Shown here one piece after another: positions 26,156-40,068 of a DNA stretch of 64,000 bases; the stretch's first letter is position 1; each line of letters opens with the position of its first letter. The stretch is from Roseicitreum antarcticum (lineage in GTDB: Bacteria; Pseudomonadota; Alphaproteobacteria; Rhodobacterales; Rhodobacteraceae). The position numbers and the translations under genes are program-made. Under the pieces are notes generated by a model. The model was given only the letters and a program-made list of their open reading frames with translations, was not told the origin of the DNA and searched no databases. The stretch lies in the NCBI RefSeq assembly GCF_014681765.1, contig NZ_CP061498.1:992001-1056000 (forward strand), given 5' to 3'.

Positions 26156-26170
26156 ACAGTGAGATTTAAG

Positions 26171-26836
26171 TCAACATCTTTTTTGCCATGGCGCGCGCGG
26201 AGGCATGGCATCAGTGACCAACCAGCGGTCCAGACTTGCGCGCGCGAGCTGATCACGAACCGCCCGCAACGCCCGCCACCATGCGCTGTAGCGCGCCCGC
26301 GCCGCCTCGATCTGATGTGCCGTCGGCGTTATCAGCACGTCGCAGCACATCACATCGCGGGTCACCAACCCGCGCTTGCGGCTGTGTTCCTGCACGGTCC
26401 CGCAGACCCGCGTCGCCGCAAACACGCCGTGCTTGTGCTGCCGCCATTCGCGCGGCACCACGCGCGGGCGGGCGTCGCGCATCCAGTCGGGCACCGCGCG
26501 TGCCCGCGCCAGTTCGGCAATCGTCACCGCCATGCCGCGCCCGCCATGGATCACCGGCAGCCCGGCCACGATGGACGCCACGATGTCGGCATCGTCATGC
26601 GGCAGCGACCGGCCACCGCCGTCGATCGTGCAGCCAACCATCGCGCACTGCATCAGCAGGTACTCATTGCCGACCCCGACGCGCCCTGCCCCCGAGGTCG
26701 CCGCCATCTCATCAAACTCCAGCTGCGCAAACTCCACCGCGAACGCCCATTCCAGAAGCGCCACCACGCCCACCTCGACCTGCCCCGCCGGGCGCACCCG
26801 CGCCGCATCCTCAAACCGCATCGCGAACGCACCCAT
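26171..26836 (-). CDS. Hypothetical phage protein
   Basis: 221 residues. Notable are WMRDARPRVVPREWRQHKHGVFAATRVCGTVQ in the middle and a C-terminal amphipathic stretch (ARARYSAWWRALRAVRDQLARASLDRWLV). No recognised domain. The frame is continuous and shares one base with the gene upstream, so it is probably real. Confidence 0.5.
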   Translation of the reverse strand: MGAFAMRFEDAARVRPAGQVEVGVVALLEWAFAVEFAQLEFDEMAATSGAGRVGVGNEYLLMQCAMVGCTIDGGGRSLPHDDADIVASIVAGLPVIHGGRGMAVTIAELARARAVPDWMRDARPRVVPREWRQHKHGVFAATRVCGTVQEHSRKRGLVTRDVMCCDVLITPTAHQIEAARARYSAWWRALRAVRDQLARASLDRWLVTDAMPPRAPWQKRC

Positions 26837-27537
26837 TACGCGCCCGCCGCCTTGGGGCCGACAGACTTCTTGATTGTCTCGACGCGCTTGAGCAACACGC
26901 GGGCATGATCACCGAACTTGACGACGGCGTCAGCATGCTCACGCGCCTTTTCCGCGTGATCCAAAACCTTCTGCTCGTGGACCCTCACTGATGCCACGAG
27001 ATCACGGACCTGAGTTGCGACCTCATCCATCTCGGCGTTGCCGCCATCCGGGCCAAACATCTCCTCTCGGATCGAGGAGACCCATCCAAGCATGACGCCC
27101 TCACCAAGGATATCTGCAACGCTTTTGTCCGTGTCACCGCCTTTGTAGCGTTTAGCTTCATCATCGTAGCACACCTCCAGAATGCCGATGATTTCGCGCT
27201 TCTGTTTCGGCGTGGGCTGACGCGGTGCGATCTGGGCCACGTTGGTGCTCGCGGGGGCAGTGTCCATGTGCAATATCTCCTTTGATCGGCGCGCTTCGAC
27301 GCAATTTGGGCAGAGGTTTTTCTTGCGGATGGATTGCCAACCAGCGTTTTCGAGTTTGGTCGACACCTGGCTTAGTTTTGCGAGAGTCAGAACGCCACGC
27401 GTGCTGCACCTCCCGGTTTTGATGAATTTCGTTGACGGCCCGTGAGCTGCGCGGAACTCGTATGTTGTGCCGCAATCATCGCAGGTTGCTCGGGCCAGCT
27501 TCTCTCCCCTCGCACCCTTGATTGGCTCTACACTCAT
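26836..27537 (-). CDS. Zinc-ribbon phage protein of unknown function
   Basis: About 233 residues from ATG 27537, overlapping the stop of the upstream gene. An N-terminal zinc-ribbon-like region (CDDCGTTYEF ... CSTRG ... LCPNC) is followed by a helical C-terminus with TPKQKREIIGILEVCYDDEAKRYKGGDTDKSVADILG. The C-terminal motif recurs in small early proteins of alphaproteobacterial phages, in my recollection. Possibly a regulator of the leftward early operon. Confidence 0.55.
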   Translation of the reverse strand: MSVEPIKGARGEKLARATCDDCGTTYEFRAAHGPSTKFIKTGRCSTRGVLTLAKLSQVSTKLENAGWQSIRKKNLCPNCVEARRSKEILHMDTAPASTNVAQIAPRQPTPKQKREIIGILEVCYDDEAKRYKGGDTDKSVADILGEGVMLGWVSSIREEMFGPDGGNAEMDEVATQVRDLVASVRVHEQKVLDHAEKAREHADAVVKFGDHARVLLKRVETIKKSVGPKAAGA

Positions 27538-27797
27538 GCGTCCTCCCTCTCTGTTGAAAACATCTTGTCGTGGATCTTCTGGGCGCGGCGCAGAGCGGCT
27601 ACCTTCGGTTCGTATGTTGAGGCCCAATAGCGCGACTCCCCGGTCCGAGGGTGGGAGCGGGCGGCCAGCTTCTCGTAAAATTCGATGCGGCCGGGCAGAT
27701 CGGCTGCTGTGATGGTCTCACCCCAGATGCCGGTTATCATGGTGATCGTGCCATCGAAGTTGACCACGGCCCGGACGCTACGCAATTTGCTGCTCAT
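27534..27797 (-). CDS. Small hypothetical phage protein
   Basis: 87 residues: VRAVVNFDGTITMITGIWGETITAADLPGRIEFYEKLAARSHPRTGESRYWASTYEPKVAALRRAQ. No domain recognised. ATGA overlaps on both sides place it in a tight leftward operon with the zinc-ribbon gene. Confidence 0.55.
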   Translation of the reverse strand: MSSKLRSVRAVVNFDGTITMITGIWGETITAADLPGRIEFYEKLAARSHPRTGESRYWASTYEPKVAALRRAQKIHDKMFSTEREDA

Positions 27798-28279
27798 GCG
27801 TACATCTTCCTGCGGTCAGTTTTTTTTAGCTTCCCGGATGGTTCATATTCCTTGCCATTGTCATCAATGAGCGGCTCGTTCCAGTACAGCAGAACTGATA
27901 TCGCGTGCTTGCGAAGCCCCGGGAACTGGCCCAACCATCGCTTTGCCGTAGGTATCACTTCGTTTTCGAGCTTCGAGCGGTTGATGGCGTCGAGCTTGAA
28001 CCGATCACCGGTTTGGCTGCCGATAACTTTCTCGCCGGTCTTCTCGCGCTTCACTTCGCGCAATGCCTCGTAGACCTGCGCCGCAGTTGGATGCGCGGTG
28101 TGTTGGTCATTTTGATATGCTGGAATGTCTTGTCGATGGTTCCAGGCCGGATGTTTCGCGTGTGAACACCCGGCGATGGTTTCCATCTCGCGCGCCAGCG
28201 CTTCGGGATTTTCCTTCATCGACGCGATGGGTGAAAATGTGTCCAGCCATGCGAGGACTTGATCATTGGTCGTCTGCAT
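27794..28279 (-). CDS. Hypothetical phage protein
   Basis: 161 residues, hydrophilic, starting MQTTNDQVLAWLDTFSPIASMKENPEALAREME. It contains a TAAQVYEALREVKREKTGEKVIGSQTGDRFKLDAINRSKLENEVIPTAKRWL stretch of predicted helices. It overlaps the DUF1376 gene, so a replication-linked role is possible; nothing specific is recognised. Confidence 0.5.
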   Translation of the reverse strand: MQTTNDQVLAWLDTFSPIASMKENPEALAREMETIAGCSHAKHPAWNHRQDIPAYQNDQHTAHPTAAQVYEALREVKREKTGEKVIGSQTGDRFKLDAINRSKLENEVIPTAKRWLGQFPGLRKHAISVLLYWNEPLIDDNGKEYEPSGKLKKTDRRKMYA

Positions 28280-28933
28280 CTCGTTTCGCCTCCTTGCTTC
28301 TGAGGATTTCCTTGGCCCTCAACATTGCCTCTTGTTCCCGGCCTTGGGTTCTGGGTTTTCGTGGAAAATTTATGATCTCTTTTTCCCGCCCCCCTGGGGG
28401 GGCTAAGGGGGGTTCTTTTATACTTGGACTCTTGGTCTCTTGGGTAGGTTGTTCCCCGGAATGCCGCTGTAGTTTCCGTGGTTGCATCTTGATCGTTATT
28501 TTTCAGTGACTTATATGAGTTTATGTCAGAACTGTCTGCTCTTGCTGCGTTCCCTCAGGGAACGCAGCGCGTTCCCTGAGTTCTCCGATCCCCTTTTCCG
28601 GTCACTTTGGTCGCGCAAAAACTTCTCTGTTTTGGTCGCTTCTTTGGTCAGTCTGACGTTGGTCCAGTACCCGTTTTCGACATCGAAAAATGGCTCCAGC
28701 GCTGGCCGGATTCGCGCGCGCCACATCTTCTGTGAACACCGCGCCAAGCGTGCCAGCTTGCGGTCATCATCGGGCATGTTCAGTTCTTCGCGGGACCACA
28801 TCGCATAGAGGATCAGGTGATAGGCGCCGAACTCGTCGGCTGCCAAATCCATCGTATCCCGCACAAAAGCATCCACCCAGATCGGGCAGGCATACTTGGT
28901 CCGCGCCTTCTTGGGGTTGTAGTCTTGGCTCAA
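28263..28933 (-). pseudogene. DUF1376 (YdaU-like) replication-associated protein, frame-disrupted
   Basis: The N-terminal DUF1376 domain is clear: KYACPIWVDAFVRDTMDLAADEFGAYHLILYAMWSRE...PDDDRKLARLARCSQKMW. After SENSGNALRSLRE the frame shifts near 28555 into a Ser/Thr/Asn-rich linker and again near 28395 into EKEIINFPRKPRTQGREQEAMLRAKEILRSK, ending at 28263. DUF1376 proteins sit where phage replication initiators (lambda O/P equivalents) sit. Inverted copies of GCGTTCCCT cluster at the first break (28548-28578). Confidence 0.65.
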
Positions 28934-28957
28934 GATTTTCGCCTCCCGCCTTTGCCT

Positions 28958-29032
28958 TCAAGACGTGCAGGGGTGGGCGACCACATCCACCCGCGCGCCG
29001 CTGCCACGGGTCAGCTTCCGCCTGCGCGTCAT
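28958..29032 (-). CDS. Very short ORF (24 aa), doubtful
   Basis: MTRRRKLTRGSGARVDVVAHPCTS; its ATG overlaps the stop of the 51-residue ORF upstream (ATGA). Coupling is the only evidence, so it may be a leader-type peptide or nothing. Confidence 0.2.
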   Translation of the reverse strand: MTRRRKLTRGSGARVDVVAHPCTS

Positions 29033-29184
29033 GATTCCTTCGCGTCCTCCGTCATCGCCGCGATCAAGGCCTCTTGTCTTTCTTCATCGGAAACACGGCC
29101 TCGATTATGATGATGACGCCCCCATCTGGCGGTATGTCCGTGGAACTGGTGACCCATGTTGAACCTGCTGTCATCGACCTTCAT
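29029..29184 (-). CDS. Small ORF (51 aa), possibly the 3' part of a longer gene
   Basis: Reads MKVDDSRFNMGHQFHGHTARWGRHHHNRGRVSDEERQEALIAAMTEDAKES, His/Arg-rich with a helical end. The frame is open a further ~30 bp upstream (ERLIEARQDGIAAA), so it may be the continuation of the HTH gene upstream after a frame change rather than an independent gene. Confidence 0.35.
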   Translation of the reverse strand: MKVDDSRFNMGHQFHGHTARWGRHHHNRGRVSDEERQEALIAAMTEDAKES

Positions 29185-29873
29185 TGCGGCGGCGATGCCG
29201 TCCTGGCGTGCTTCAATGAGCCTTTCATGTTATCCTTTGTCGGCCGGATCTTGTTGGGTTCGAAGAAATGCCCTGTCAGCTGCCATTTCGCCTTCATGTG
29301 TGTGGTGGACATTGCGCAGCATCGCTTCCCGGTCAGCACTTGGGCTATTTCCCGGTATCTCTTGATATGCGGCTGGCACTTGCTCCAATGGTTGCCCGAA
29401 TGAAATTCGGGAACACCTGCTTTGGCGGCCATGGCAGGATGATGCGCATCGGGGGTAATTTCACTTCGACCGCTCCGAATAGCCAATTCAGACATCTTCT
29501 GGCCATGCGCGCTCCTCGATGAACTGTCGATCGGCATGGTGGGCTTCCACCCGCCATTGTGCTTGCCAGAGGGGCCACGCTCTCTTTTCGGCAGCCCCAT
29601 TCTGCGGACCGCGTTGCCGACCGTTTGCGAGTGGTCTGAACCGAAATATCGTGCAATTTCTGACAGGCTGACACCGGCCAGGTACATTTCCTTGGCCAAT
29701 GTCGGATCGACTATGGTTTTGCGAAGTGTGCTGCGCGGTGGCAGCCCCATGCGCTTGGCATGCCAGCTGCACGCTTGACGAGTAAAGCCGATTGTTTCGG
29801 CGATCTTCGCTGTAGGCACCTTGTGGTTGCACCATAGCTTGGCGAAGATTTCTTTGTTGAATTTTGCTGGCAT
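29181..29873 (-). CDS. GcrA-like double helix-turn-helix protein
   Basis: About 230 residues from ATG 29873. Two similar helix-turn-helix units are visible: KIAETIGFTRQACSWHAKRMGLPPR (about 23-47) and EIARYFGSDHSQTVGNAVRRMGLPKR (about 73-98). Each ends in the R-(M/L)-G-L-P-x-R turn of GcrA-type regulators. The C-terminal half is basic and may include a late frame change. Probably a transcriptional regulator of the leftward operon. Confidence 0.55.
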   Translation of the reverse strand: MPAKFNKEIFAKLWCNHKVPTAKIAETIGFTRQACSWHAKRMGLPPRSTLRKTIVDPTLAKEMYLAGVSLSEIARYFGSDHSQTVGNAVRRMGLPKRERGPSGKHNGGWKPTMPIDSSSRSAHGQKMSELAIRSGRSEITPDAHHPAMAAKAGVPEFHSGNHWSKCQPHIKRYREIAQVLTGKRCCAMSTTHMKAKWQLTGHFFEPNKIRPTKDNMKGSLKHARTASPPQ

Positions 29874-29927
29874 CACACACCCTCGAATTACCCCCGGTGC
29901 GAACCGGGGGCTTTGCAAAAAATCAGA

Positions 29928-30116
29928 TCACGCCGCCTGCTTGCCCGTGTCGGTCAATTCGACATGCGTCGAACCGCGCGCGTTCGGGCGGCCACTTGCT
30001 TTCACCAGGCCCATGGCCTTGAGCTTTGCCGCGGTAACGGCACTGATCAGTCCGGCGCCGTCTTTCAGGGATACGAGCGCGGCCTTCTGCTTCTCGGTGA
30101 GTGACAGGTCGTTCAT
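29928..30116 (-). CDS. Small winged-helix protein
   Basis: 62 residues from ATG 30116: LSLTEKQKAALVSLKDGAGLISAVTAAKLKAMGLVKASGRPNARGSTHVELTDTGKQAA. This has the layout of a MarR-like winged helix (recognition helix, wing, 'L-T-D-x-G' end). Small phage regulator by appearance. Confidence 0.55.
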   Translation of the reverse strand: MNDLSLTEKQKAALVSLKDGAGLISAVTAAKLKAMGLVKASGRPNARGSTHVELTDTGKQAA

Positions 30117-30183
30117 GGTCTCTTGGTTCACGTTGGCCTCCTTGGGGTTATTTGCGCGGAACACCCGCCGCGCCGGGATTGGT

Positions 30184-30879
30184 TCACTGCAACAAATCAG
30201 GCTGTCGCCAGTCGTGCCGGTCGAGCCAGCGAAAATCGGGGTGATTGGATTTGGTGTCGCGCGGGTCATCGCGATCCCACACGAACCACGCATTGCGCTG
30301 AGGTGGTGAGCCTTCGCCCGTAAAGTCCAGCTTCCAGCGCATCAGGTAGCAATAGCTGAACGGGTTGGCGTCAAGCAGCGCGCCAAGCCCATTCGCGCGG
30401 GCCGCTGGCCAATCCCATGACAACAGCAGGGCGCAGTACCGCCAATCATGCAAATTGAGCGTGTGGTGCAGCCAGCGGCCATGGCCATCGCGCGCATTGA
30501 TCAGGTTGTAAGGCGGGTTGGTGATGATCGCCCGGCCCCGGCTGCGATAGCAGGAGAAGTAATCAGCCGTCCAACTATCGGGACACCCCCGGTCGATCAG
30601 GTCGGATGCAGAGCATGGCAGGCCGAAGGCGCGTATCTCACGCACCATGGCCCCATCGCCGCAGGCTGGTTCCCAGACTGACCCCAGCGCGCGCAAGCGA
30701 TCGCCATCGGCATGCAGCAGGGAACGCACGGCTTCCGGCTGGCCGGTGGCGTAGAAGTCATGCTCGCGGCGCTGCTCCACCGGCCTCGAATGCTTTGGCA
30801 AGTCCAACGCAAGGCCGGGCCCTTTCAGGACCGGCTTTGCCTTGGTGGCGCGAAACAGGGATTTTGCGCTTTGCGTCAT
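30184..30879 (-). CDS. Phage DNA N6-adenine methyltransferase
   Basis: 231 residues. The SAM-binding motif is VWEPACGDGAM (69-78) and the catalytic motif is TNPPYN (120-125), i.e. an amino-methyltransferase of the DPPY class. An N-terminal EHDFYAT segment (39-45) is common in this phage group. It would methylate adenine in phage DNA, protecting it from host restriction. The target sequence cannot be predicted. A second, broken relative lies at 45.2 kb. Its start overlaps the upstream stop. Confidence 0.8.
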   Translation of the reverse strand: MTQSAKSLFRATKAKPVLKGPGLALDLPKHSRPVEQRREHDFYATGQPEAVRSLLHADGDRLRALGSVWEPACGDGAMVREIRAFGLPCSASDLIDRGCPDSWTADYFSCYRSRGRAIITNPPYNLINARDGHGRWLHHTLNLHDWRYCALLLSWDWPAARANGLGALLDANPFSYCYLMRWKLDFTGEGSPPQRNAWFVWDRDDPRDTKSNHPDFRWLDRHDWRQPDLLQ

Positions 30880-31094
30880 ACCGCGCCCTCCGCGACATCT
30901 AGCTGAGGGCCGATAAGTTCACCGTACTTGTGAACCGCCTGCCAGTGGCCTCGGCATTGAATGCCAAGGTCACCGAGCAGGTCCAGCGTGTGACATGGCC
31001 AGTCATCGGCAGAAATGTGGGCGCAGGACATCTGATACTCGACGCTTGCTCCGCGAAAGGGGCATGTCTGGCATTTATTCGCGGCTCTGATCAT
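30876..31094 (-). CDS. Small Cys-rich phage protein
   Basis: 72 residues from ATG 31094: MIRAANKCQTCPFRGASVEYQMSCAHISADDWPCHTLDLLGDLGIQCRGHW. Five Cys with His residues (C-x2-C-P-F-R, C-A-H, C-H-T, C-R-G-H) suggest a zinc or iron-sulfur site. ATGA overlaps on both sides tie it to the methyltransferase operon. Confidence 0.55.
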   Translation of the reverse strand: MIRAANKCQTCPFRGASVEYQMSCAHISADDWPCHTLDLLGDLGIQCRGHWQAVHKYGELIGPQLDVAEGAV

Positions 31095-31228
31095 GCCAAC
31101 ACCCCGGCCGGGATGCACAGCACCACCGCGAACAAGCGCAGATGCATTGCCATCAGCTCACACGCGATTGAGCTGTCTGTAATCACGACGCTGGCGCCGG
31201 ATGCAGAGGCTATCAAAAGGGCGATCAT
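31091..31228 (-). CDS. Micro-ORF (45 aa), hydrophobic
   Basis: MIALLIASASGASVVITDSS... with a second hydrophobic stretch HLRLFAVVLCIPAGVLA at the end, so a tiny membrane protein is possible. Both ends share ATGA overlaps with neighbours, the main argument that it is translated. Confidence 0.4.
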   Translation of the reverse strand: MIALLIASASGASVVITDSSIACELMAMHLRLFAVVLCIPAGVLA

Positions 31229-31344
31229 TCTACCCACCCCGCGCGCGTTTGGATTGCAATGACGCCGCCCCGGCGCAGGGAGGAGGAGGCACCGGGGCGA
31301 CTGGCCGCGCGGGAGGAGTGCGCGGTGTTAAGTGGGCGGATCAT
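31225..31344 (-). CDS. Micro-ORF (39 aa)
   Basis: MIRPLNTAHSSRAASRPGASSSLRRGGVIAIQTRAGWVE; Arg/Ser-rich and unlike any known family. Supported only by ATGA coupling at both ends within the leftward regulatory operon. Confidence 0.35.
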   Translation of the reverse strand: MIRPLNTAHSSRAASRPGASSSLRRGGVIAIQTRAGWVE

Positions 31345-31676
31345 GCCGCCACCGATTTCTTGAAGGCCGGTTTGCCGGGGATAAGCCCATCTCTGGCTAC
31401 GTCGACAACCCAGCCGCTTGGGCATGATGTGCCATACATCCACAGACGTGCTGCTTTTTCACTGACGCCGAAGTCTGCGCCCAGTTCCGTGCTGTTTTCC
31501 CAATTCTCACGACAGTAGGCCGCCCATTCTTCGGGGAACTCTCGGCGGGCGCGGTGCGGATCAAACAAGCGCCTGGAGAATTTTCCGGCGAGAAGGTCGG
31601 AAAAGCTACCGGACGACACGTCCAGAGGTTGCGTGCAATCTCTTAGGAACACGTTTTGCGAGGGAAGAAATGACAT
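31341..31676 (-). CDS. Phage regulatory-region protein with possible HTH
   Basis: 111 residues. EFPEEWAAYCRENWENSTELGADFGVSEKAARLWMYGTSCPSGWVVDVAR contains a plausible helix-turn-helix (TELGADFGVSEKAARLW) followed by a Trp-containing turn. Located directly downstream of the Cro-like gene in the same transcript, like a CII-type regulator; inference from place. Confidence 0.55.
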   Translation of the reverse strand: MSFLPSQNVFLRDCTQPLDVSSGSFSDLLAGKFSRRLFDPHRARREFPEEWAAYCRENWENSTELGADFGVSEKAARLWMYGTSCPSGWVVDVARDGLIPGKPAFKKSVAA

Positions 31677-31927
31677 TACGACACCCCAGTGTGCTGCTGC
31701 GTTTTTTGCTGCTCACAACGTGCAAGCAAGCTTTGCCGCAAGTCGAACAGATCCTGCGGGGTAACTTCAGTTCCAGCCCCGCGAGAGGCGGACATAATCT
31801 TCGCGTCGTATCGCGCGGGTATCGACCCTCGGTTGAACCAATTCCGCACAGTCGTCTCACCCTCGCCAATTGCTCGGGCGAGATTGGCTGCGGAGCCCCA
31901 GATGCTGATAAGCTTGTCTTTGTTCAT
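31676..31927 (-). CDS. Cro/YdaS-like phage regulator
   Basis: 83 residues from ATG 31927. NKDKLISIWGSAANLARAIGEGETTVRNWFNRGSIPARYDAKIM is a compact HTH of the Cro/YdaS type (bind and choose). It is divergent from the CI-like gene across 72 bp, the classical lysis/lysogeny layout, and heads the leftward early transcript. Its stop overlaps the next start (TAATG). Confidence 0.7.
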   Translation of the reverse strand: MNKDKLISIWGSAANLARAIGEGETTVRNWFNRGSIPARYDAKIMSASRGAGTEVTPQDLFDLRQSLLARCEQQKTQQHTGVS

Positions 31928-31999
31928 GCGACACAAATTGAATTGCGCCGAGCCGCTTGTCAACACCCTTTGTGTCATTTTGGGTGTTAGGAACTCACC
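31928..31999. promoter_or_regulatory. Divergent lysis/lysogeny operator-promoter
   Basis: 72 bp between cro-like and cI-like genes. A perfect inverted repeat AACACCC (31962-31968) / GGGTGTT (31982-31988) and a separate GACAC (31930-31934) / GTGTC (31972-31976) pair are candidate repressor sites. On the minus strand a consensus -35 TTGACA (31963-31958) overlaps the AACACCC arm and faces the cro-like gene. An AGGA ribosome site (31989) precedes the cI start. Confidence 0.6.
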
Positions 32000-32584
32000 A
32001 TGGACATGCACACGAGATTGAGAGAAGCGCGCGAACGCGCCGGATACGCCGATGCGGCCAGCGCGGCGCGCCGCTTTGGGTGGGGTGAAACCACATATCG
32101 TTCACATGAGAATGGTCAGCGTGGCTTCAAGCTGGATAAGGCCGTCCAATATGGAAGAGCCTTCCGCGTATCCCCCGAATGGCTACTTCTTGGAAAGGGA
32201 GACGACCTGAAGAAGCCCGTTTCGCTCGTGGGCTACGTCGGAGCTGGGGCAGAGGTCTTCGCGATAGATGATGGCGGCGCGCTTGACGAACTTGAGCCGC
32301 CTCCCGGGATCGGGCCGGACGCGGTTGCTGTTGGTGTCCGAGGAGATAGCATGTTCCCGCGCTACATGGATGGCGATATTCTTATCTATGACAGGCACAT
32401 CTTTATTGACCAGGCAGACGGCCAAGAGTGCGTTGTGGGCCTGATGGACGGCAGAAAATTCGTCAAGATCGTGCGAGCTGAACCTGATGGAACGGTAACA
32501 CTAGAAAGCTGGAATGCGCCTCCAATGAGGCGTATGGAGTTTGAGTTTCTCGCTCCAATTTTGTGGGTGAAGCGGAAGCCGTGA
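32000..32584 (+). CDS. CI-like prophage repressor (XRE HTH + S24 peptidase)
   Basis: 194 residues. The XRE-type helix-turn-helix covers about residues 5-60 (AASAARRFGWGETTYRSHENGQRGF). The C-terminal S24/LexA-like domain has the nucleophile Ser117 in VRGDSM and the general-base Lys in GRKFVKIV (about 156), so RecA-stimulated self-cleavage is plausible. Gly-Ala-Gly near residue 81 is a possible cleavage region. It maintains lysogeny by repressing the divergent cro-side promoter and probably the 33.2-kb promoter. Confidence 0.85.
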   Translation: MDMHTRLREARERAGYADAASAARRFGWGETTYRSHENGQRGFKLDKAVQYGRAFRVSPEWLLLGKGDDLKKPVSLVGYVGAGAEVFAIDDGGALDELEPPPGIGPDAVAVGVRGDSMFPRYMDGDILIYDRHIFIDQADGQECVVGLMDGRKFVKIVRAEPDGTVTLESWNAPPMRRMEFEFLAPILWVKRKP

Positions 32585-32595
32585 AGGGGAAGCCT

Positions 32596-33177
32596 ATGTT
32601 AAGACTGAATTTTGCAATGGCAGCGATGAGTTCACTCTTCCTTTCCTCCGCAAGTCATGCCGACGTTGCCGTGTGGAAAGAGAACGTCGGTGGATGGGAT
32701 ATCTTTGTCGACCGAACCGTGGACGATGCATGCTTCATGATAGGCCTATTCGAGAGTGGGACATTCATTCGGTTACAGGTTGAGATGGCCGCCCCAGGAA
32801 TCACATTCTATATTGGGAACGAGGAATGGCAGTCGATTGAACATGGAAAAGCCTACGATATGTCGGTCCAGTTTGGCTCACGGACGCCTTGGACCGGCGA
32901 GGCATACGGTTTTCTGTGGGATGGCCTGCCGTCAACGGGTATGTTTGTTTCCTTCGCCAATGGCCGCGCTGACCGCTTTTTGGAAGAATTCCGTCGAATG
33001 CCAGGGGTGCGGGTCCGCTACCAGGGATCGCAGATTGCCAGTATTTCGCTGAGGGGTTCCTTCCAAGCCGTTGGTGAGCTTTACGATTGCGTGGGTGAGA
33101 TGCTTTTGGCCCGTGAGAACGCAGCGACCGATCCATTCTCTGAGAGAACACCAATCAGTAACGATCCGTTCAGGTAA
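32596..33177 (+). CDS. Secreted protein encoded next to the repressor (possible lysogenic conversion gene)
   Basis: About 193 residues from ATG 32596, 11 bp after the cI stop. A signal peptide is clear (MLRLNFAMAAMSSLFLSSASHA, cleavage before DVAVW). The mature part has GGWDIFVDRTVDDACFMIGLFESGTFIRL and two Cys ~160 residues apart. The domain resembles small periplasmic proteins of Rhodobacteraceae whose function I do not know. Expressed with the repressor it would be made by the lysogen, the mark of a conversion or superinfection gene. Confidence 0.6.
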   Translation: MLRLNFAMAAMSSLFLSSASHADVAVWKENVGGWDIFVDRTVDDACFMIGLFESGTFIRLQVEMAAPGITFYIGNEEWQSIEHGKAYDMSVQFGSRTPWTGEAYGFLWDGLPSTGMFVSFANGRADRFLEEFRRMPGVRVRYQGSQIASISLRGSFQAVGELYDCVGEMLLARENAATDPFSERTPISNDPFR

Positions 33178-33234
33178 CTGATTGAGCGAATCACGGCGCG
33201 TAAACTTTTCTGAGATTGTGCGATACAAAAAGTG

Positions 33235-33266
33235 TTGACCTGTCTCGATGCGACACATAAAGTGTC
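33235..33266 (+). promoter_or_regulatory. Rightward early promoter with operator palindrome
   Basis: -35 TTGACC (33235-33240), 17-bp spacer, -10 TAAAGT (33258-33263). The perfect palindrome GACAC-ATAAA-GTGTC (33252-33266) covers the -10, and a degenerate GATAC/GTGTT copy overlaps the -35 (33222-33236). GACAC/GTGTC also occurs between cI and cro, so the repressor probably acts here. GGAGG at 33280 precedes the first early gene. Confidence 0.6.
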
Positions 33267-33289
33267 ACCATCATCCGATGGAGGCACAC

Positions 33290-33661
33290 ATGCGAGACCA
33301 CCCCCCGAAAGACATTCAATCACTCGGCCACACGGTTGGGCCTGACGGCGCTGGCTGGGCCATTGACCCTGACGGCTCTGCGGAGTTCGGCACACTGTCG
33401 CTGCGTGACAGCGCTGCGGACCACAGCGCCGTTGCCCGGCAGGCTGAGGATTTCAGTAATCCGTTCGCCGACACCGATCTGCGTCAGCAGGCTGAGCGCG
33501 AGGCAGAGGCAATTCAGCGCGCCATCGTCAGGCTGCGCTTCATCGCTCTGTTTTTGATTGCTGCCTTGGCGCTTTGGCTGGTTTTCCTGCCATGGAGCGC
33601 CGCAGCCCTCGGCCAGACGATCAGTAATTACCAGACACCGAACGCAGGGGTGCCTTGGTAA
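33290..33661 (+). CDS. First early gene: membrane-anchored phage protein
   Basis: 123 residues from ATG 33290, chosen for the GGAGG five bases upstream; an in-frame ATG further upstream lies in the operator. A polar N-terminal half (SLGHTVGPDGAGWAIDPDGSAEFGTLSLR) is followed by a helix and one transmembrane segment (FIALFLIAALALWLVFLPW). A membrane protein at the head of the early operon could be a superinfection-exclusion factor, which is speculative. Confidence 0.55.
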   Translation: MRDHPPKDIQSLGHTVGPDGAGWAIDPDGSAEFGTLSLRDSAADHSAVARQAEDFSNPFADTDLRQQAEREAEAIQRAIVRLRFIALFLIAALALWLVFLPWSAAALGQTISNYQTPNAGVPW

Positions 33662-33852
33662 TGAGCGCCCCAGCCCGCACCCCGCTTGATGCCGCATTGC
33701 GCGCGCTGAACGCTGCCGCATATCTCGCGGCGCATGAGGCGCGCATGGCAAAAGACCCCCGCGCCGATGATCTCAAGCGCATGTCGCTGCAAACCGACGA
33801 TCTGGTTGATGGTCGTTCCGTGATGCAGGCGCGCCAAAAGGAAAATTCTTGA
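33661..33852 (+). CDS. Small hypothetical early protein
   Basis: 63 residues, MSAPARTPLDAALRALNAAAYLAAHEARMAKDPRADDLKRMSL, helical. TAATG overlap with the gene before and TGATG overlap with the gene after show operon coupling. No family known. Confidence 0.5.
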   Translation: MSAPARTPLDAALRALNAAAYLAAHEARMAKDPRADDLKRMSLQTDDLVDGRSVMQARQKENS

Positions 33853-34599
33853 TGGATAACCCAGCCCTCACGGCAGGATCTGAGCCATGTTGTTCGTCGC
33901 GTCCCGAAAGATGTCCGCACATTGCTTTCCAAGTTTCACGGCACCCTGTTCCTCGGTGGTGGCTTTGTTCGCGCCGTGGTCGCGGGGGAACAGCCTTCCG
34001 ATGTTGATCTGTTCGGGCCGAGCAAGGAATTGCTGACCAAGATCGCTGAGGAGTTGCAGGCGTCACGCGGCGGCAAGCAGTTCTGCCGCCTTCATCACAC
34101 CAGGAACGCAATCACGGTTATATCCATAGGCCGTATCACGGTGCAGTTCATCACGCGCTGGGAGTTCGCAGATGCCAAAGCGCTGGTAAGCTCTTTTGAT
34201 TTCAGCGTTTGCCAAGCTGTCATTTTCCGTGACGGTGGCACCAAAAAATCGCCTTGGTCTTCGGTCACCGGTCCCCGCTTCTATATTGATCTTGCTGCGC
34301 GCCGGATCCACTACACCCACCCCGTCCGCGAAGAAGAGGCCGGGGGTAGCCTGATGCGCGCACTCAAGTATCAGCGGCGCGGATATGTCATGCAGATCGA
34401 GTCTTTGGCTGGCGTGGTGTCGCGGCTGGTCGCAAAGCTCGACCCCAGTAAAGTCGACACGAAGGATGAAGGCGCAGTGACGCGCATCATGCTTGGGCTG
34501 CTGCAAGAGGTTGATCCATCTATCGCCGTTGATGGGCTTGAGATTACTGATGATCATGAGACCCCAATTGAAGGGTTCTCTGAGGCGGATCAGTCGTGA
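33852..34599 (+). CDS. Nucleotidyltransferase-fold protein (frame change near its N-terminus)
   Basis: From about 33870 the frame reads DLSHVVRRVPKDVRTLLSKFHGTLFLGGGFVRAVVAGEQPSDVDLFGPSKELL. The G-G-G-F-V-R-A-x8-D-V-D motif is that of the poly(A)-polymerase-head/Pol-beta nucleotidyltransferase fold. The remainder (~170 residues) includes YIDLAARRIHYTHPVREEEAGGSLMRALKYQRRGY, also polyA-polymerase-like. The likely start ATG 33852 (MDNPALT) is one base out of frame; an internal start near 33922 gives 225 residues. Possibly RNA or nucleotide modification; substrate unknown. Confidence 0.6.
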
Positions 34600-34982
34600 T
34601 GCTGATGCGCCAGCCCACCACTGCCCGTGTCGCTTATGCGTGGCACCGCGACTATGTCGCCGGTCTCTGCCCCGAGCAGCATGACGGTGACCCTCAGTGC
34701 GGCTGGTACAAGGCGCGCCTGATCAGTGGCGGGCCATGGGTATCAGCGCGCGTCTGGCTTGAACGCGACATCGACTTTGAAACCGGCGAGTTGACCGGCC
34801 CAGAGCAGTATGTCTGCGAGGTCGATGGTCAGCGCCGCGATCCATACCGGATGTGGACGTATCTCAAGCCCATCACGAAGGCTGAATACGACAGTCTCAA
34901 CCATCGCATCAGTATGATCCCTGCGATGCGCGCCACCTTGGCGAAGGTCGATCTGACCAAAACCCCCATGCTGCCGGAGTAA
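34596..34982 (+). CDS. Hypothetical early protein
   Basis: 128 residues (GTG 34596 or ATG 34599), overlapping the nucleotidyltransferase stop. Contains DGDPQCGWYKARLISGGPWVSARVWLERDIDFETGELTGPEQYVCEVDG, a beta-rich segment seen in conserved phage early proteins of unknown role. Confidence 0.55.
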   Translation: MMLMRQPTTARVAYAWHRDYVAGLCPEQHDGDPQCGWYKARLISGGPWVSARVWLERDIDFETGELTGPEQYVCEVDGQRRDPYRMWTYLKPITKAEYDSLNHRISMIPAMRATLAKVDLTKTPMLPE

Positions 34983-34987
34983 GAGAA

Positions 34988-35440
34988 ATGATTACCAAGG
35001 AGACCGCAAAGAAGCTGGGCGATTGCTACACGAAGCTCGATGCCCTTGATCGGATCATTACCAATTTTCAAGACGATCTCATCGAGAACTTGCGTAACAT
35101 CGCGGAGTGCGAAGCTGCCAAGACGGACTGCTTGTCGACCATCGGTGAACTGGGTGGCGAGGTTCCTTCTGCTGAACGTAAGCGGCAACACTACGAAGCC
35201 GAACGCACAGCGCACCCGAAGGCCGCACAGCACCGCTGGGCGATCATCCACGACCCGACGCCCGGCGGACGCCAAAACGAAGACGGGTCTCGCAACTTTT
35301 CGTTGCGCTTCCCGGTCTTGTTGCTGACCGATTATGTCGACGATCCCGAAACTGTCGCGATCAGCGTGGCCAAAGCCCTGAATGAGGCGTTTGAGCGCGA
35401 AAAGGCTCTGCGGCCCAAAGTGGCTGAAAGCGCCGCCTAA
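34988..35440 (+). CDS. Hypothetical early protein
   Basis: 150 residues. N-terminal helical region (KKLGDCYTKLDALDRIITNFQDDLIENLRNIAE) followed by FSLRFPVLLLTDYVDDPETVAISVAKALNEAFE. No known domain. Precedes the coiled-coil/RecT pair, so it may belong to the recombination module. Confidence 0.5.
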   Translation: MITKETAKKLGDCYTKLDALDRIITNFQDDLIENLRNIAECEAAKTDCLSTIGELGGEVPSAERKRQHYEAERTAHPKAAQHRWAIIHDPTPGGRQNEDGSRNFSLRFPVLLLTDYVDDPETVAISVAKALNEAFEREKALRPKVAESAA

Positions 35441-35473
35441 CCTTCACCCTCAAAAACCCAAGGAGACCAACCA

Positions 35474-36334
35474 ATGAACGACCTTTCTGGATTGCCCGAC
35501 CGCCTTCACAATCAGCCGCCTGAGGCGATTGTCATGCCGACGCTGCCGGGCGAAGCCACCCTGGAGCAGGTGAAGCGCGCGAAAGAGGCGGCTGAGGCGG
35601 CGCGCACTAAGGCCGACGACAAGCAGGCAGCCTATGACGATATGGCCCATGCTGAACTGAATGCGCACGTCTCAGTGTTCTGCGATGCCGCTGGCAAATG
35701 GCTGGACATCAAGACGGTGCAGACCGTCGATCAGGCGGAACGGCTGACCGACTTCATCACCGGCGCCCGGGGGCTTTTCAAGCGCGTCGAGGACGCCCGG
35801 AAGGCAGCGAAGAAGCCTTGGGATGATCTGGGCGCGGAGGTGCAGGAAGCCTTTACCCCGCTGACTGCCAAGCTGGATAAGCTGGGCAAAACCATGAAGG
35901 CCATGCAGGGCGACTGGCTGCGCCGTGAGAGCGACCGGCTTGCCCGCGAGAAGGCCAAGGCCGAGGCCGAGGCACGCGCGGCGCGGGAAGAAGCCGAGCG
36001 CCTGGCCCGTGAGGCGGCGGAACGCAACGACATCGCCGGTCAGGTGGAAGCCGAGGCTGCGCTGAAACAGGCCAATAAGGCCGAGAAGGTTGCGGCCAAG
36101 CCGGTCAAGGCGCGCGCCGGGAGTGCCACGGGCGGCGGCCGGGCCATGGGTATGCGCAAGATCAAGGCCGCAAAGATCACCAACATCCGGGCCTGCTTTG
36201 CCTATTTTCAGGCTGACCCGGCAGTTTCAGAGTTGCTGACGCGCCTCGCCACGGCGGCGGTGCGGTCGGGCGAAATCACCCAAGATACCGCGGTCATTGC
36301 CGGTATCGACATCATTGAAACGGAAGGTGTGTAA
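35474..36334 (+). CDS. Coiled-coil protein of the recombination module
   Basis: 286 residues with AAGGAG upstream. A long Ala/Glu/Lys/Arg coiled coil (about residues 155-200) is flanked by an N-terminal helical domain and a C-terminal globular part (KITNIRACFAYFQADPAVSELLTRLATAAVRSG). Similar proteins precede recT in alphaproteobacterial phages. The stop overlaps the recT start. A structural or recombination-accessory role is likely. Confidence 0.6.
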   Translation: MNDLSGLPDRLHNQPPEAIVMPTLPGEATLEQVKRAKEAAEAARTKADDKQAAYDDMAHAELNAHVSVFCDAAGKWLDIKTVQTVDQAERLTDFITGARGLFKRVEDARKAAKKPWDDLGAEVQEAFTPLTAKLDKLGKTMKAMQGDWLRRESDRLAREKAKAEAEARAAREEAERLAREAAERNDIAGQVEAEAALKQANKAEKVAAKPVKARAGSATGGGRAMGMRKIKAAKITNIRACFAYFQADPAVSELLTRLATAAVRSGEITQDTAVIAGIDIIETEGV

Positions 36335-37557
36335 TGGCTGGTACGAGCATCAAGACCCTGCCAATCCGGCAGTTGCAAAATGTCGATCAGTTGCTGATCA
36401 ACGACAACGCCCGGCAACAACTGTCGATGGTTGCAGCGAAGCACCTGAACCCTGAGCGTATGATGCGCGTCGTCGCCAATGCGATCCGCACCACGCCGAA
36501 ACTGCGCCAGTGTGAGCCTTTGAGCTTTCTTGGCGCGCTGATGCAGTGTTCGTCGTTAGGTCTAGAGCCAAACACGATACTTGGCCACGCCTATCTTGTG
36601 CCCTTTGATAAGAACGTCAAAGGCCCGGATGGCCGCTGGCAAAAGATACCCCAAGTTCAGCTGATCGTTGGCTACAAGGGCCTGATCGATTTGGCACGGC
36701 GTTCCGGGCACATCACAAGCCTTTCGGCCAACATCCACTACTCCGACGACGAGCTGTGGGAGTATGAGGAGGGCACCGAGGCACGCCTTCGCCACCGGCC
36801 CGGTAACATGGAAGGCCAGAAGCTGCACGCCTATGCCATCGCCAAATTCAAGGATGGCGGCCACGCCTATGTGGTCTTGCCTTGGGCGCATGTGATGAAG
36901 ATCCGCGACGGCGCGCAGGGTTGGCAGAGTGCCGTGAAAATGGGCAAGACCGAAGACAGCCCGTGGGCAAAGCATGAAGACGAGATGGCGAAGAAAACCG
37001 CTATTCGCGCGCTGTCCAAGTATCTGCCGCTTTCGGTCGAGTTCATGGACGCCATGGCGGTTGATGAAGTCGGGGCCGATTATCGCGGCTTTGCCATGGA
37101 CCCAAGCGGCGGCGTTGCTCAAACCGATGGGGACTACATCGACGGCGAAGCCGAAGATGGCGACGCCGACCCGGAGACGGACCAGTCAAAACCCGATCAA
37201 GAAAAGGCGGGGCGTCAAGAGGCTGAAAAGCCGAAGGAAACTGCGAAGGCCGAGGCAAAACCCGCCGAACAGGCGAAGCCCGATCAAGAAAAGTCGCAGC
37301 CCTACGACACCCGGCCCTCGCGCACCAAGAAGCAGGAAGCATCCAGCGGCGATCAGTTGCCGCTGGATCAACCTTCGCCCCAAATGACCGCTGCCAATCG
37401 CATGGCCGATCAGATCATTGGTGAAATCAATGACGGGGTTCATCCCGATGAGGTCTACGACCTCTTCCGGGACCAGATCGCCAACCTTGAGGCAAACCCC
37501 GAAATGAGCCCAGTTCTTGAACGGATTAATGCCGCTTTCGACCAAGCTGGAAACTGA
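36334..37557 (+). CDS. recT: RecT single-strand annealing recombinase
   Basis: 407 residues. The RecT core is clear: NPERMMRVVANAIRTTPKLRQCEPLSFLGALMQCSSLGLEPNTILGHAYLVPF (about 39-91), QVQLIVGYKGLIDLARRSGHI, and ...KKTAIRALSKYLPLS (about 222-237). A long acidic/Lys-rich linker (about 270-350) precedes a small C-terminal segment. RecT anneals ssDNA during phage replication. No RecE/YqaJ exonuclease is visible beside it. Confidence 0.9.
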   Translation: MAGTSIKTLPIRQLQNVDQLLINDNARQQLSMVAAKHLNPERMMRVVANAIRTTPKLRQCEPLSFLGALMQCSSLGLEPNTILGHAYLVPFDKNVKGPDGRWQKIPQVQLIVGYKGLIDLARRSGHITSLSANIHYSDDELWEYEEGTEARLRHRPGNMEGQKLHAYAIAKFKDGGHAYVVLPWAHVMKIRDGAQGWQSAVKMGKTEDSPWAKHEDEMAKKTAIRALSKYLPLSVEFMDAMAVDEVGADYRGFAMDPSGGVAQTDGDYIDGEAEDGDADPETDQSKPDQEKAGRQEAEKPKETAKAEAKPAEQAKPDQEKSQPYDTRPSRTKKQEASSGDQLPLDQPSPQMTAANRMADQIIGEINDGVHPDEVYDLFRDQIANLEANPEMSPVLERINAAFDQAGN

Positions 37558-37582
37558 AAAACCACGACCAAAGGAGAACGAC

Positions 37583-37900
37583 GTGTCGGATGGAAACAGC
37601 CATTTTTTGATGGCGATAGGGCGGATTGATGGCGGGCTTGCCATCGAAACGGCGGATCAGGCGTTGAAAGACGTGATCGCCGCCGTCCAGCGGAGCGGCA
37701 AGAAAGGCAGTGTCACTGTCTCGCTTGATGTTTCGCCAAACGGTGAAATGGGCTTTGCGGCATCCGCAAAAGTCACTGCGAAGGCCCCGCAGTCAATTTC
37801 GGCCAGAGCTTCTTTTCATGGGCGGGACGGCGCGCTGACGCGCGAAGCCCCCAGCATGCAGCAGCTTGGCCTCATGGATAAGGAGAAAACCCGTGGCTGA
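37583..37900 (+). CDS. Small phage protein downstream of recT
   Basis: 105 residues from GTG 37583 with AAGGAG upstream, which decides the start. FLMAIGRIDGGLAIETADQALKDVIAAVQRSGKKGSVTVSLDVSPNGEMGFAASAKVTAKAP is beta-rich and common between recT and DUF2303 genes; function unknown. It overlaps the DUF2303 start by 8 bp. Confidence 0.6.
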   Translation: MSDGNSHFLMAIGRIDGGLAIETADQALKDVIAAVQRSGKKGSVTVSLDVSPNGEMGFAASAKVTAKAPQSISARASFHGRDGALTREAPSMQQLGLMDKEKTRG

Positions 37901-38706
37901 TAAGACAGAGTTTCAGGCAAAGATCGAGCACAACCTTGCGCTGGCCTCTATGGGCGGTGTCGGCTTCGACAGAAATGCTTATGGGCAGTATGCAGTTGTC
38001 CCGGATGGCCACCAACTTCAGTCTTTGGAGGTTTCAGGATCGCCCCAATAACATCAAAACCGATCATCGGTTTGTTTCGGCAAAGTCTTTTTCGTAATAC
38101 CTGACCGGTTCTTCACGGACTCATGCTGATCACAGCGTCATCAGACAAGGCGCAAATGTACGCTGTGATCGACTATCATGATGCAGATCCAGAGTGCGGG
38201 TTGTCCTGCCAAGCCATGGCGCGCACAAGGCCATTTATACCGCGCGCAAAACTGACAAGATCAAGGCGTGGCTGTCGATGTGCAACACACCGCTGGGTCA
38301 GATCGACTTTGGTCTGTTCCTGGAAGAACGCGCGGTTGACGTGATCCAGCCAATGGCGGCGGAAATCATGGAAATGGTGATGCAGTTCGAGGCCACCAAG
38401 AAGGTGGAATTTAAGAGCAGCACGCGCCTGGCCGACGGTTCCCGGCAGTTCAGCTACGTCGAGGATAACCAGACGCGCGGCGGGATCACACTGCCTGACA
38501 AGATCATCGTTCGCGCGCCGATCTATCAGGGTATGGAGCCCCAGGACATCAAGTTCCTGCTGCGCTACCGGATCAACGAAGGGTCTTTGAAGTTCACCAT
38601 CAAGATGCACGACGAGGAAGAAGTCTTGCGAGATGCCTTCGAGCGGTGCGTGGACGCCGTGCAGCACGACGTTAAGCCCACCCAAACCGTCTACTGGGTC
38701 GAGTAA
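37893..38706 (+). pseudogene. DUF2303 (YfdQ-like) protein, multiply disrupted
   Basis: Starts ADKTEFQAKIEHNLALASMGGVG and VVPDGHQLQSLE, the DUF2303 N-terminus, then breaks near 38030. A middle part can be followed in other frames (NNIKTDHRFVSAKSFS, a stop at 38094, then MLITASSDKAQMYAVIDYHDADPE). A further shift near 38205 gives HGAHKAIYTARKTDKIKAWL...FGLFLEERAVDVIQP to the end. Total ~271 codons, the family's usual length. DUF2303 genes accompany recT; role unknown. Confidence 0.65.
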
Positions 38707-38719
38707 CCGGAAAACCCTC

Positions 38720-38743
38720 GCGCGCCGGGTCATTCCGGCGCGC
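38720..38743. other. GC hairpin between early genes
   Basis: Perfect 9-bp inverted repeat GCGCGCCGG (38720-38728) / CCGGCGCGC (38735-38743) with a 6-base loop, in the 60-bp gap after DUF2303. There is no T run, so it is more likely an RNA-processing or attenuating hairpin than a simple terminator. Confidence 0.4.
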
Positions 38744-38766
38744 CTGAGCAGCAATAGGAGCAGCAT

Positions 38767-38946
38767 GTGGCCCATAACCTGACAGAGATTCACAGGATCG
38801 CGGCGATTGTCGCCAGCCAGAATGACCACCTGCTCCCAATTTTTGAGCGCATGGAGGAAATCATGGCTGAACATGAAGCGATCAAAAGCAAAGACGCGGT
38901 TCAGATCGCCAGAATGAAGCTGATGAAGCTCAAGGCGGCGGCATGA
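38767..38946 (+). CDS. Small hypothetical early protein
   Basis: 59 residues from GTG 38767 with AGGAG upstream: AHNLTEIHRIAAIVASQNDHLLPIFERMEEIMAEHEAIKSKDAVQIARMKLMKLKAAA. Entirely helical, with an ATGA overlap to the next gene. Confidence 0.5.
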   Translation: MAHNLTEIHRIAAIVASQNDHLLPIFERMEEIMAEHEAIKSKDAVQIARMKLMKLKAAA

Positions 38947-39260
38947 TCTACCGCAAGTATGAGTTCCCAATTGTCGATCAGACTGCAAAGGTCTGGTTTG
39001 TTGAAATCCCCGGGCGCCAGAAGACCGCCCTGCATGACGAGATGATCCCAAAATCCGTGAATGTCATGCTGGGGCTGGTCTCGCGCAAGCTCCCGACAGG
39101 TTTGATCGAAACGCACATCCAGCTGGCAGTACCGGAAAACATCGCTGACGCGGCCTATGCCGATCAGCCGCGCGGCCCTGTGGTCGATCCCCATGAAATC
39201 GAAAAAGCAAAGGAATATGGCAATGACATCCACCACCCAGGCTGTCGTAGACCTGCATGA
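38943..39260 (+). CDS. Hypothetical early protein
   Basis: 105 residues: YRKYEFPIVDQTAKVWFVEIPGRQKTALHDEMIPKSVNVMLGLVSRKLPTGLIETHIQLAVPEN. No known domain. Coupled to both neighbours by overlaps. Confidence 0.5.
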   Translation: MIYRKYEFPIVDQTAKVWFVEIPGRQKTALHDEMIPKSVNVMLGLVSRKLPTGLIETHIQLAVPENIADAAYADQPRGPVVDPHEIEKAKEYGNDIHHPGCRRPA

Positions 39261-39423
39261 AGCAGCAATGCGGGCGAAGTATCTCGCGGATGAGGCAGGC
39301 GACAGCCGCCTGTTTCACCTGCGCCAGATCAGCGCCTACACCGGGCGTCTGGTCGAGGGGGTGCCACCCAACCCGGCACCTGTGTTTCACAGTGTGCGGG
39401 CGATTCATGGGAGCCGGGCATGA
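39217..39423 (+). CDS. Small hypothetical early protein
   Basis: 68 residues from ATG 39217 (or 39223): TSTTQAVVDLHEAAMRAKYLADEAGDSRLFHLRQISAYTGRLVEGVPPNPAP. Helical; overlaps the preceding gene by 44 bp and the next by 4 bp. Confidence 0.45.
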   Translation: MAMTSTTQAVVDLHEAAMRAKYLADEAGDSRLFHLRQISAYTGRLVEGVPPNPAPVFHSVRAIHGSRA

Positions 39424-39674
39424 CCGAACAGCACACCCCAACCGAGGACCAGATCGCAACTGTGATCGAACGTACGGGCGGAGATCCTCGCAAGCTGGCG
39501 ATAGCCTATCTGCGCGCCCAGAAACGCGCGCGCGATCCCGAAGTGTATGCGGGCTTCATGGGCGACATCACCGATCTGTCGATTGCCACCTTGAAAGGCA
39601 GCGTGCCGGAGGCAATGCGCGCCGTCGAAAGGGCGGAGCGTCGCGTCAAGACGCAAAAGGAGGTTTCGGAGTGA
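39420..39674 (+). CDS. Small hypothetical early protein
   Basis: 84 residues, MTEQHTPTEDQIATVIERTGGDPRKLAIAYLRAQKRARDPEVYAGFMGDITDLSIATL. Helical, no family recognised. ATGA/GTGA overlaps on both sides. Confidence 0.5.
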   Translation: MTEQHTPTEDQIATVIERTGGDPRKLAIAYLRAQKRARDPEVYAGFMGDITDLSIATLKGSVPEAMRAVERAERRVKTQKEVSE

Positions 39675-39868
39675 TCGCCACCATCCCCGCCACCACATCA
39701 TACAGCAGCGCCGCAGCCCCACCCGCGCGCGTAACGCTGCCTAAGGCGCAATTCATCATCCCGCACGACGACCGCAGCGACACAGCGCCCCGTGGTGCGC
39801 CGATCCGAGCCAATCGCGGCTACCGCGAAGATCGGGTGATCGACTGGGCTTGGAGGTGCGCGCGATGA
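39671..39868 (+). CDS. Small hypothetical early protein
   Basis: 65 residues from GTG 39671 (GTGA overlap): IATIPATTSYSSAAAPPARVTLPKAQFIIPHDDRSDTAPRGAPIRANRGYREDRVIDWAWRC. Low complexity and Pro/Ala-rich at first; function unknown. Confidence 0.45.
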   Translation: MIATIPATTSYSSAAAPPARVTLPKAQFIIPHDDRSDTAPRGAPIRANRGYREDRVIDWAWRCAR

Positions 39869-40068
39869 CGCCTGACACGCTCACAGACGCTTTGGCCCGC
39901 GCTCAGGACACGATCACGGCGTTTGAGTCCGCATGTCGCAAAATCCTGCCGCTGATCGAAGCGGCAAGTCGAGAAGAAGTCACGGATGTCGCCGACTGGG
40001 ACGAGGCGGAGGACATGATCCGCGCGGCGATGGATCACAAAGGAGTAAATCATGAAGCTACTGCGTGA
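39865..40068 (+). CDS. Small hypothetical early protein
   Basis: 67 residues from ATG 39865 (ATGA overlap): TPDTLTDALARAQDTITAFESACRKILPLIEAASREEVTDVADWDEAEDMIRAAMDHKG. Helical and acidic. Overlaps the next gene by 17 bp. Confidence 0.5.
   Translation: MTPDTLTDALARAQDTITAFESACRKILPLIEAASREEVTDVADWDEAEDMIRAAMDHKGVNHEATA

What the first reader, a model, noticed from the sequence alone, without database searches (positions are those of the whole stretch)
32596..33177. Secreted protein co-expressed with the repressor: lysogenic conversion candidate
A signal-peptide protein begins 11 bp after cI and before the early promoter, so a lysogen should produce it. Its domain resembles host periplasmic proteins and it has no obvious phage role.
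Basis: inference. Interest (0 to 1): 0.55.

Follow-up and report, generated by a model that had tools for sequence, protein, structure and literature searches.

The report
Prophage-carried periplasmic protein beside repressor
A dormant virus in a bacterial chromosome carries, directly behind its repressor gene, a gene for a secreted protein that looks borrowed from bacterial chromosomes, in a spot where related viruses carry other membrane proteins, so it probably changes or guards the envelope of the infected cell.

Summary
A 193-aa ORF (32596-33177 +) starts 11 bp after a LexA/CI-type repressor gene (32000-32584), with a Shine-Dalgarno-like AAGGGG touching the repressor stop. It ends before an early promoter-like site (33235-33263) set in twin operators, inside a tRNA-Arg prophage (4783-47029).

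Its relatives are Paracoccaceae chromosomal genes; none lay beside genes of this prophage in the loci compared. It matches no Pfam, PHROG, NCBIfam or PADLOC family. Its model (pLDDT 83.5) has the fold of the periplasmic protein IalB (VIA-align Z 12.5), with two invariant cysteines.

The slot is that of lambda rexAB. Of 9 distinct phages with a close repressor, 3 carry a gene there: this one, a small membrane protein in Ruegeria phage 45A6, and a Rex-like-sized pair. In a second repressor clade 2 of 5 do. All five occupied slots encode at least one predicted membrane or exported protein.

Best reading: a captured host envelope protein, co-expressed with the repressor in the lysogen, most likely acting in superinfection exclusion or envelope change. 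Co-expression is strongly implied by anatomy; the effect is inferred. Split portal, protease and methylase genes suggest the prophage may be decaying.

The parts
4783..47029 (.). Prophage, between exact 46-bp copies (4783-4828, 46984-47029) of the 3' part of a tRNA-Arg(ccg) gene
   Evidence: integrase at 45930-46928
31676..31927 (-). Cro/YdaS-like regulator, divergent from cI (start ATG chosen by me; the listed ORF begins at 32011)
   Evidence: conserved in all 8 distinct relatives of the first repressor clade
32000..32584 (+). cI-type repressor with S24 domain
32596..33177 (+). Cargo gene: 193-aa probably secreted IalB-fold protein, cysteines 46 and 165
32596..32661 (+). Probable signal peptide, residues 1-22
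   Evidence: sequence and alignment A4; low pLDDT in residues 1-21; fails the crude hydropathy rule
33219..33235 (+). Operator-like repeat 1
33235..33263 (+). Early promoter-like site TTGACC-17-TAAAGT
33249..33265 (+). Operator-like repeat 2
33290..33661 (+). First early-operon gene (start ATG with GGAGG chosen by me; the listed ORF begins at 33248, inside repeat 2)

Best explanation
The gene is an accessory (moron) gene in the 'rex slot' of a temperate Paracoccaceae phage. An ancestor took a chromosomal gene for a secreted IalB-fold protein and placed it between the repressor gene and the operator-guarded early promoter. In the lysogen it is transcribed from the repressor's promoter and translated from a ribosome-binding site abutting the repressor stop codon, while the repressor keeps the next promoter shut. 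The product is exported, loses about 22 residues, forms one C46-C165 disulfide and works in the periplasm or at the envelope. Most likely it serves the prophage by hindering entry of other phages (superinfection exclusion) or by otherwise altering the envelope. Shown: gene order, spacing, operator-like repeats, homology, absence from relatives, model fold. Inferred: co-transcription, export, disulfide, effect.
For: 11-bp gap with SD-like AAGGGG and no intervening promoter- or terminator-like site. Twin operator-like repeats follow the gene; paired sites with the same 30-bp spacing are found in 45A6, L075 and L077 (25 bp in L074), and in L074, L075 and L077 they start 19-23 bp after cI with no gene between. 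Other slot genes: 67-aa membrane protein in Ruegeria phage 45A6; a 303-aa plus four-helix membrane protein pair in L069, absent from colinear relative L076; N-terminally anchored and lipoprotein-like genes in L086 and L089 of a second clade, none in L091-L093. Chromosomal relatives in 47 of 295 same-family genomes, own included; the cargo groups with Paracoccaceae chromosomal proteins at 100/98 support. IalB fold Z 12.5. Precedents read as passages: the region after the lambdoid repressor is a common accessory-gene site, with rexAB and bstA (PMC7067206); a RexAB-type defence pair lies downstream of a CI-like repressor in a P. putida prophage (PMC12894663).
Against: No expression data or phenotype. 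Signal peptide weak by hydropathy. No characterised relative; the IalB fold does not give a function. The slot is empty in 6 of 9 and 3 of 5 relatives, so nothing requires it. Portal, ClpP-like protease and methylase genes are split between frames, so the prophage may be decaying. Family members also occur away from repressors, in chromosomes and in one phage contig.
Confidence: 0.55

Rival explanations
1. Envelope or fitness conversion without phage exclusion: the protein repeats or supplements whatever the chromosomal family does in the periplasm, helping the lysogen rather than blocking phages.
For: All close relatives found are chromosomal genes; the cargo keeps the family's conserved residues, so the ancestral activity may be kept; the host has no second copy.
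Against: Neighbours in the slot of related phages are unrelated membrane or exported proteins, which fits a shared phage-directed role better than one particular host function; known slot genes rexAB and RexABpp are defence genes.
Confidence: 0.3
2. Passenger: a captured gene in a decaying prophage, expressed or not, with no present function.
For: Split portal, protease and methylase genes, while three other portal genes in this genome span the model in one frame; only one copy of this cargo is known.
Against: The ORF is intact and keeps all invariant residues at about 35-45% identity to relatives; cI, operators and ribosome-binding site are intact.
Confidence: 0.17
3. Lytic-cycle function: the gene belongs to the early or late lytic programme (for example an envelope step in infection) and its place beside cI is incidental.
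For: Another phage contig (MT836812, L006) carries a family member beside a tape-measure-like gene, away from any repressor that I recognised (the tape-measure reading is mine from sequence). An IalB-annotated protein occurs in Sphingobium phage Lacusarx.
Against: No + strand promoter-like site was found between 31600 and the gene, and the early promoter-like site is downstream of it.
Confidence: 0.08

Closest known systems
rexA-rexB of phage lambda and RexABpp of Pseudomonas putida prophage P1 (PMC12894663, passages)
   Same: Position: downstream of the CI-type repressor, expected to be expressed in the lysogen; accessory
   Different: Two genes, a DNA-binding protein and a four-helix membrane protein; the cargo is one probably secreted protein with no membrane helices. 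Only L069/L078 has a pair of that size and order
bstA and other genes after cI in Salmonella prophages (PMC7067206, passages)
   Same: Accessory gene after cI, transcribed from the cI promoter in the lysogen
   Different: No sequence relation was looked for; the cargo is predicted to be exported (BstA as a non-exported defence protein is recalled)
IalB family, PF06776 (PDB 3dtd)
   Same: Same predicted fold over 131 residues, Z 12.5; secreted; alphaproteobacterial
   Different: The Pfam IalB model does not match the sequence; profile comparison only suggestive; two other genes of this host do match PF06776
MotY N-terminal domain (PDB 2zf8; 8z5n)
   Same: Similar fold, Z 8.6 and 10.0; periplasmic
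   Different: MotY is a flagellar ring protein with a further domain (recalled); no sequence link found
Envelope superinfection-exclusion proteins: P22 SieA, Cor, T4 Imm and Sp (PMC11436027, passages)
   Same: Phage proteins acting at the envelope against later phages, as proposed here
   Different: No sequence relation found here; the mechanism for this cargo is by analogy only

Membership tests
IalB family (PF06776) | Sequence match to the Pfam IalB model | tested here: not met
   hmmscan listing up to E 5 shows no IalB line for the cargo; 13 family members scanned to E 1, none IalB
IalB family (PF06776) | IalB fold | tested here: met
   VIA-align Z 12.5, rmsd 3.0, 131 residues to 3dtd; next unrelated rows Z 5.4 and less
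IalB family (PF06776) | Profile-profile relation | tested here: inconclusive
   hhalign probability 13.6-59.5% against IalB alignments (the 59.5% run held some misread rows), 0.1-0.4% against reversed copies; alignment A4 gave 3.7%
Accessory (moron / lysogenic-conversion) gene | Present in one phage and absent at the same place in relatives | tested here: met
   3 of 9 phages of the clade have a gene in the slot, each a different one
Accessory (moron / lysogenic-conversion) gene | Own promoter and terminator (classical moron) | tested here: not met
   No promoter-like site on the + strand before the gene; no terminator-like site after it and before the early promoter; co-transcription with cI is the alternative
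Accessory (moron / lysogenic-conversion) gene | Expressed in the lysogen and alters the host | not testable with these tools
   Needs RNA and phenotype data
Superinfection-exclusion protein | Located at the envelope | tested here: inconclusive
   Signal peptide by homology, weak by hydropathy; periplasmic fold match
Superinfection-exclusion protein | Reduces infection by other phages | not testable with these tools
   Needs plating assays
Known anti-phage system (PADLOC) | Match to a model of a described system | tested here: not met
   No PADLOC match for the cargo at E <= 5
RexAB | Two-gene pair with a four-helix membrane partner | tested here: not met
   Single cargo gene without membrane helices by hydropathy; the next gene lies beyond the early promoter-like site

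The most novel reading that the evidence does not exclude
The gap between cI and the operator-guarded early promoter in this group of alphaproteobacterial phages is a swap-in cassette site for envelope-directed defence proteins. This cargo founds a new type: a periplasmic IalB-fold exclusion protein taken from bacterial chromosomes, whose unnamed chromosomal family may itself have an anti-phage or phage-entry role.
Probability: 0.25. Interest if true: 0.68.

Novelty: new member of a known kind. Interest (0 to 1): 0.42.

Why it matters
Genes co-expressed with a prophage repressor are among the best candidates for what a lysogen gains. This case names a slot that can be read off any phage of the group, shows it filled by different membrane or exported proteins, and offers an unnamed Paracoccaceae protein family a testable role. 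IalB-fold proteins have unclear biochemical functions (my recollection); a prophage-borne one with a selectable phage phenotype would be a handle on them.

Tried and rejected
Known-family membership: Pfam, PHROGs, PADLOC and NCBIfam gave nothing significant for the cargo; PDB sequence search gave none. A weak Pfam glycosyltransferase line (E 0.11) was dismissed as chance.

Terminator at the inverted repeat 33152-33184: rejected. It has no T-run, and folding gave z -1.35 with 15 of 200 shuffles as good.

Foldseek's top PDB rows (TEAD domains, TM-scores 0.22-0.26) were rejected as chance in favour of the VIA-align rows.

RexA relationship of the 303-aa slot gene in L069/L078: not shown. There was only a weak PHROG of unknown function and no Rex or PADLOC line. 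No relative was found beyond the same contig, and the single-sequence model had pLDDT 35, useless. 'Rex-like' here means size, order and four predicted membrane helices only.

Slot survey limits: of the 80 viral loci I read the downstream region of 23, plus L152; 57 were not read. L080-L085, L087, L088 and L090 were read but left out of the 9 + 5 count, because their operators were not defined and L090 ends at cI. L082 and L084 have a 101-aa two-helix ORF about 100 bp on; the others nothing clear. One search read L152 in a wrong frame; this was redone from L197, which proved identical to L077. The background rate of membrane-like proteins by the same crude rule is 12 of 54 annotated proteins of phage 45A6, so 5 of 5 is suggestive, not proof. 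The cargo itself fails that rule; its export is by homology.

GC comparison: cargo 52.7% against 62% for the prophage, not pursued. The figure printed there for the early gene used a start one base off and is not used.

Literature: the listings showed no paper on an IalB-like phage protein in this slot; this is a statement about those searches only.

Full report
What is there. The window lies in a 4.25-Mb genome; named chromosomal relatives of the cargo are Paracoccaceae/Rhodobacteraceae, and I take the host to be of that family. A prophage runs from 4783 to 47029 between two exact 46-bp copies of the 3' part of a tRNA-Arg gene, with an integrase beside the tRNA. Structural and replication genes are on the - strand; the RecT/methylase/integrase arm is on the + strand. 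A Cro/YdaS-like gene (-) and a cI gene (+) diverge at about 31930-32000.

The gene. cI ends at 32584; AAGGGG follows the stop codon and ATG comes at 32596. The 193-aa product has a probable signal peptide, two cysteines (46 and 165, invariant in both alignments) and conserved tryptophans. The mature part is acidic, with a C-terminal tail holding two DPF motifs, a feature shared by many relatives. After the gene come two operator-like sites 30 bp apart that enclose a TTGACC-17-TAAAGT promoter-like site. The operator pattern occurs at just these two places in the window, on either strand. That these are repressor-binding sites is inferred from their placement and conservation.

The same control region elsewhere. 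In Ruegeria phage 45A6 (cI 62% identical) and in viral contigs L075 and L077 the paired sites have the same 30-bp spacing, and 25 bp in L074. In L074, L075 and L077 they begin 19-23 bp after cI with no gene between. In 45A6 a gene for a 67-aa hydrophobic protein overlaps the cI stop, and the sites follow it. In L069 (identical to L078) about 1.5 kb encoding a 303-aa protein and a four-helix membrane protein sits after cI; its relative L076 is colinear at 82% up to 27 bp past cI and then lacks it. Counting identical or near-identical records once, 3 of 9 phages of this repressor clade (window, 45A6, L069) have such a gene; L071, L073, L074, L075, L076 and L077 do not. L071 has an 80-aa ORF 54 bp on, not exported by hydropathy, and L073 and L076 have only ORFs that I do not take for exported slot genes. 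In a second clade (cI 38-42% identical to the window's), L086 has a 165-aa protein with an N-terminal membrane segment and L089 a 164-aa lipoprotein-like protein. Both start on the cI stop and are followed by a different pair of operator-like repeats. L091, L092 and L093 have none; L091, the one printed, has its repeats soon after cI. So 5 of 14 slots are occupied, each with at least one predicted membrane or exported product. The background by the same crude rule is 12 of 54 in phage 45A6, and the window's cargo passes only by homology.

Origin. 47 of 295 same-family genomes, the window's own included, encode a relative at E <= 0.001, the best 45% identical. In the 30 homologue loci compared (20, 10; at least four pairs overlap), no gene of this prophage other than the cargo was matched. 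Neighbours in the loci read are chromosomal genes such as a LolD-like ABC ATPase, betaine-type ABC transporters or kinase-FHA-phosphatase clusters (these names are mine from sequence). In a Methylobacterium plasmid the domain is joined to a serine protease. The cargo groups with Paracoccaceae chromosomal proteins at 100/98 support in a 28-row tree. The host genome has no second copy. One phage contig (MT836812) has a distant relative next to a tape-measure-like gene.

Fold. With 11 sequences the model reaches mean pLDDT 83.5 and pTM 0.75. VIA-align gives IalB of Bartonella henselae, Z 12.5 over 131 residues at 3.0 A. Two flagellar-ring entries follow (8z5n Z 10.0, MotY 2zf8 Z 8.6), then unrelated rows at Z 5.4 and less. 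In the viral library the best match is an IalB-annotated protein of Sphingobium phage Lacusarx (E 1.3e-5). Plain Foldseek against PDB had no match at E <= 0.001. Pfam IalB does not match by sequence, although two other genes of this host do. Profile comparison is suggestive only: 38-59% for the main IalB alignments, 13.6% for a small subgroup, 3.7% when the narrower alignment A4 is used, against 0.1-0.4% for reversed copies. So the protein has the IalB fold but is not filed as an IalB family member.

Mechanism. In the lysogen the repressor should bind the operator-like sites around the early promoter and in the cro-cI gap, and is itself transcribed. With 11 bp between, and no terminator-like or promoter-like site there, the cargo should share that transcript. 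That makes it lysogen-expressed, as for rexAB and bstA (PMC7067206, passages) and the P. putida RexAB-type pair (PMC12894663, passages). Most likely effect: an envelope change that hinders other phages. This step is inference from position, export and the company in the slot.

Against this. No expression or phenotype is known, and the signal peptide is weak by hydropathy. The prophage may be broken: portal, ClpP-like protease and methylase, and probably the tape measure, are each split between frames. Three other portal genes of the same genome span the model in one frame, which argues against genome-wide sequencing error. A broken prophage can still express cI and cargo, but could also be on its way out.

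Verdict. The locus type is known; this cargo type in that locus was not seen in the papers searched (listings).

Noticed in passing
window 20430-20929, 21050-22395, 41823-43809, 14387-16423: ClpP-like protease, portal, C5 methylase and probably tape-measure genes are each split between two frames; three other portal genes of this genome span the model in one frame, so local decay looks likelier than poor sequence.
   Followed up: partly
L069 10298-11738 (identical in L078): A 303-aa protein plus a four-helix membrane protein inserted just after cI, the size and order of RexA-RexB but with no recognisable relative.
   Followed up: partly
L086 6612-7109 and L089 6612-7106: Two phages with about 80% identical cI regions carry unrelated genes, an N-terminally anchored protein and a lipoprotein-like protein, starting on the same cI stop codon.
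   Followed up: partly
L005 4890-6071 (Methylobacterium plasmid pNMS14P1): The cargo's domain is joined to a serine protease next to a gene annotated SrfB.
   Followed up: no
L006 2132-2617 (phage contig MT836812): A distant family member lies beside a tape-measure-like gene in an unannotated human-faecal phage contig.
   Followed up: partly
BFVD matches of model m39aac45615a8: Uncharacterised proteins of several unrelated phages (for example Serratia phage MTx at E 5e-4, Vibrio phages nt-1 and VH7D at E 3e-3) resemble the cargo's fold, beside an annotated IalB protein.
   Followed up: no
window 33922-34599: Early-operon protein matching a PHROG annotated as nucleotidyltransferase (E 4e-8).
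   Followed up: no
G000, contigs C1 and C4: The host genome carries several other lambda-type portal genes, so it is probably a polylysogen.
   Followed up: no
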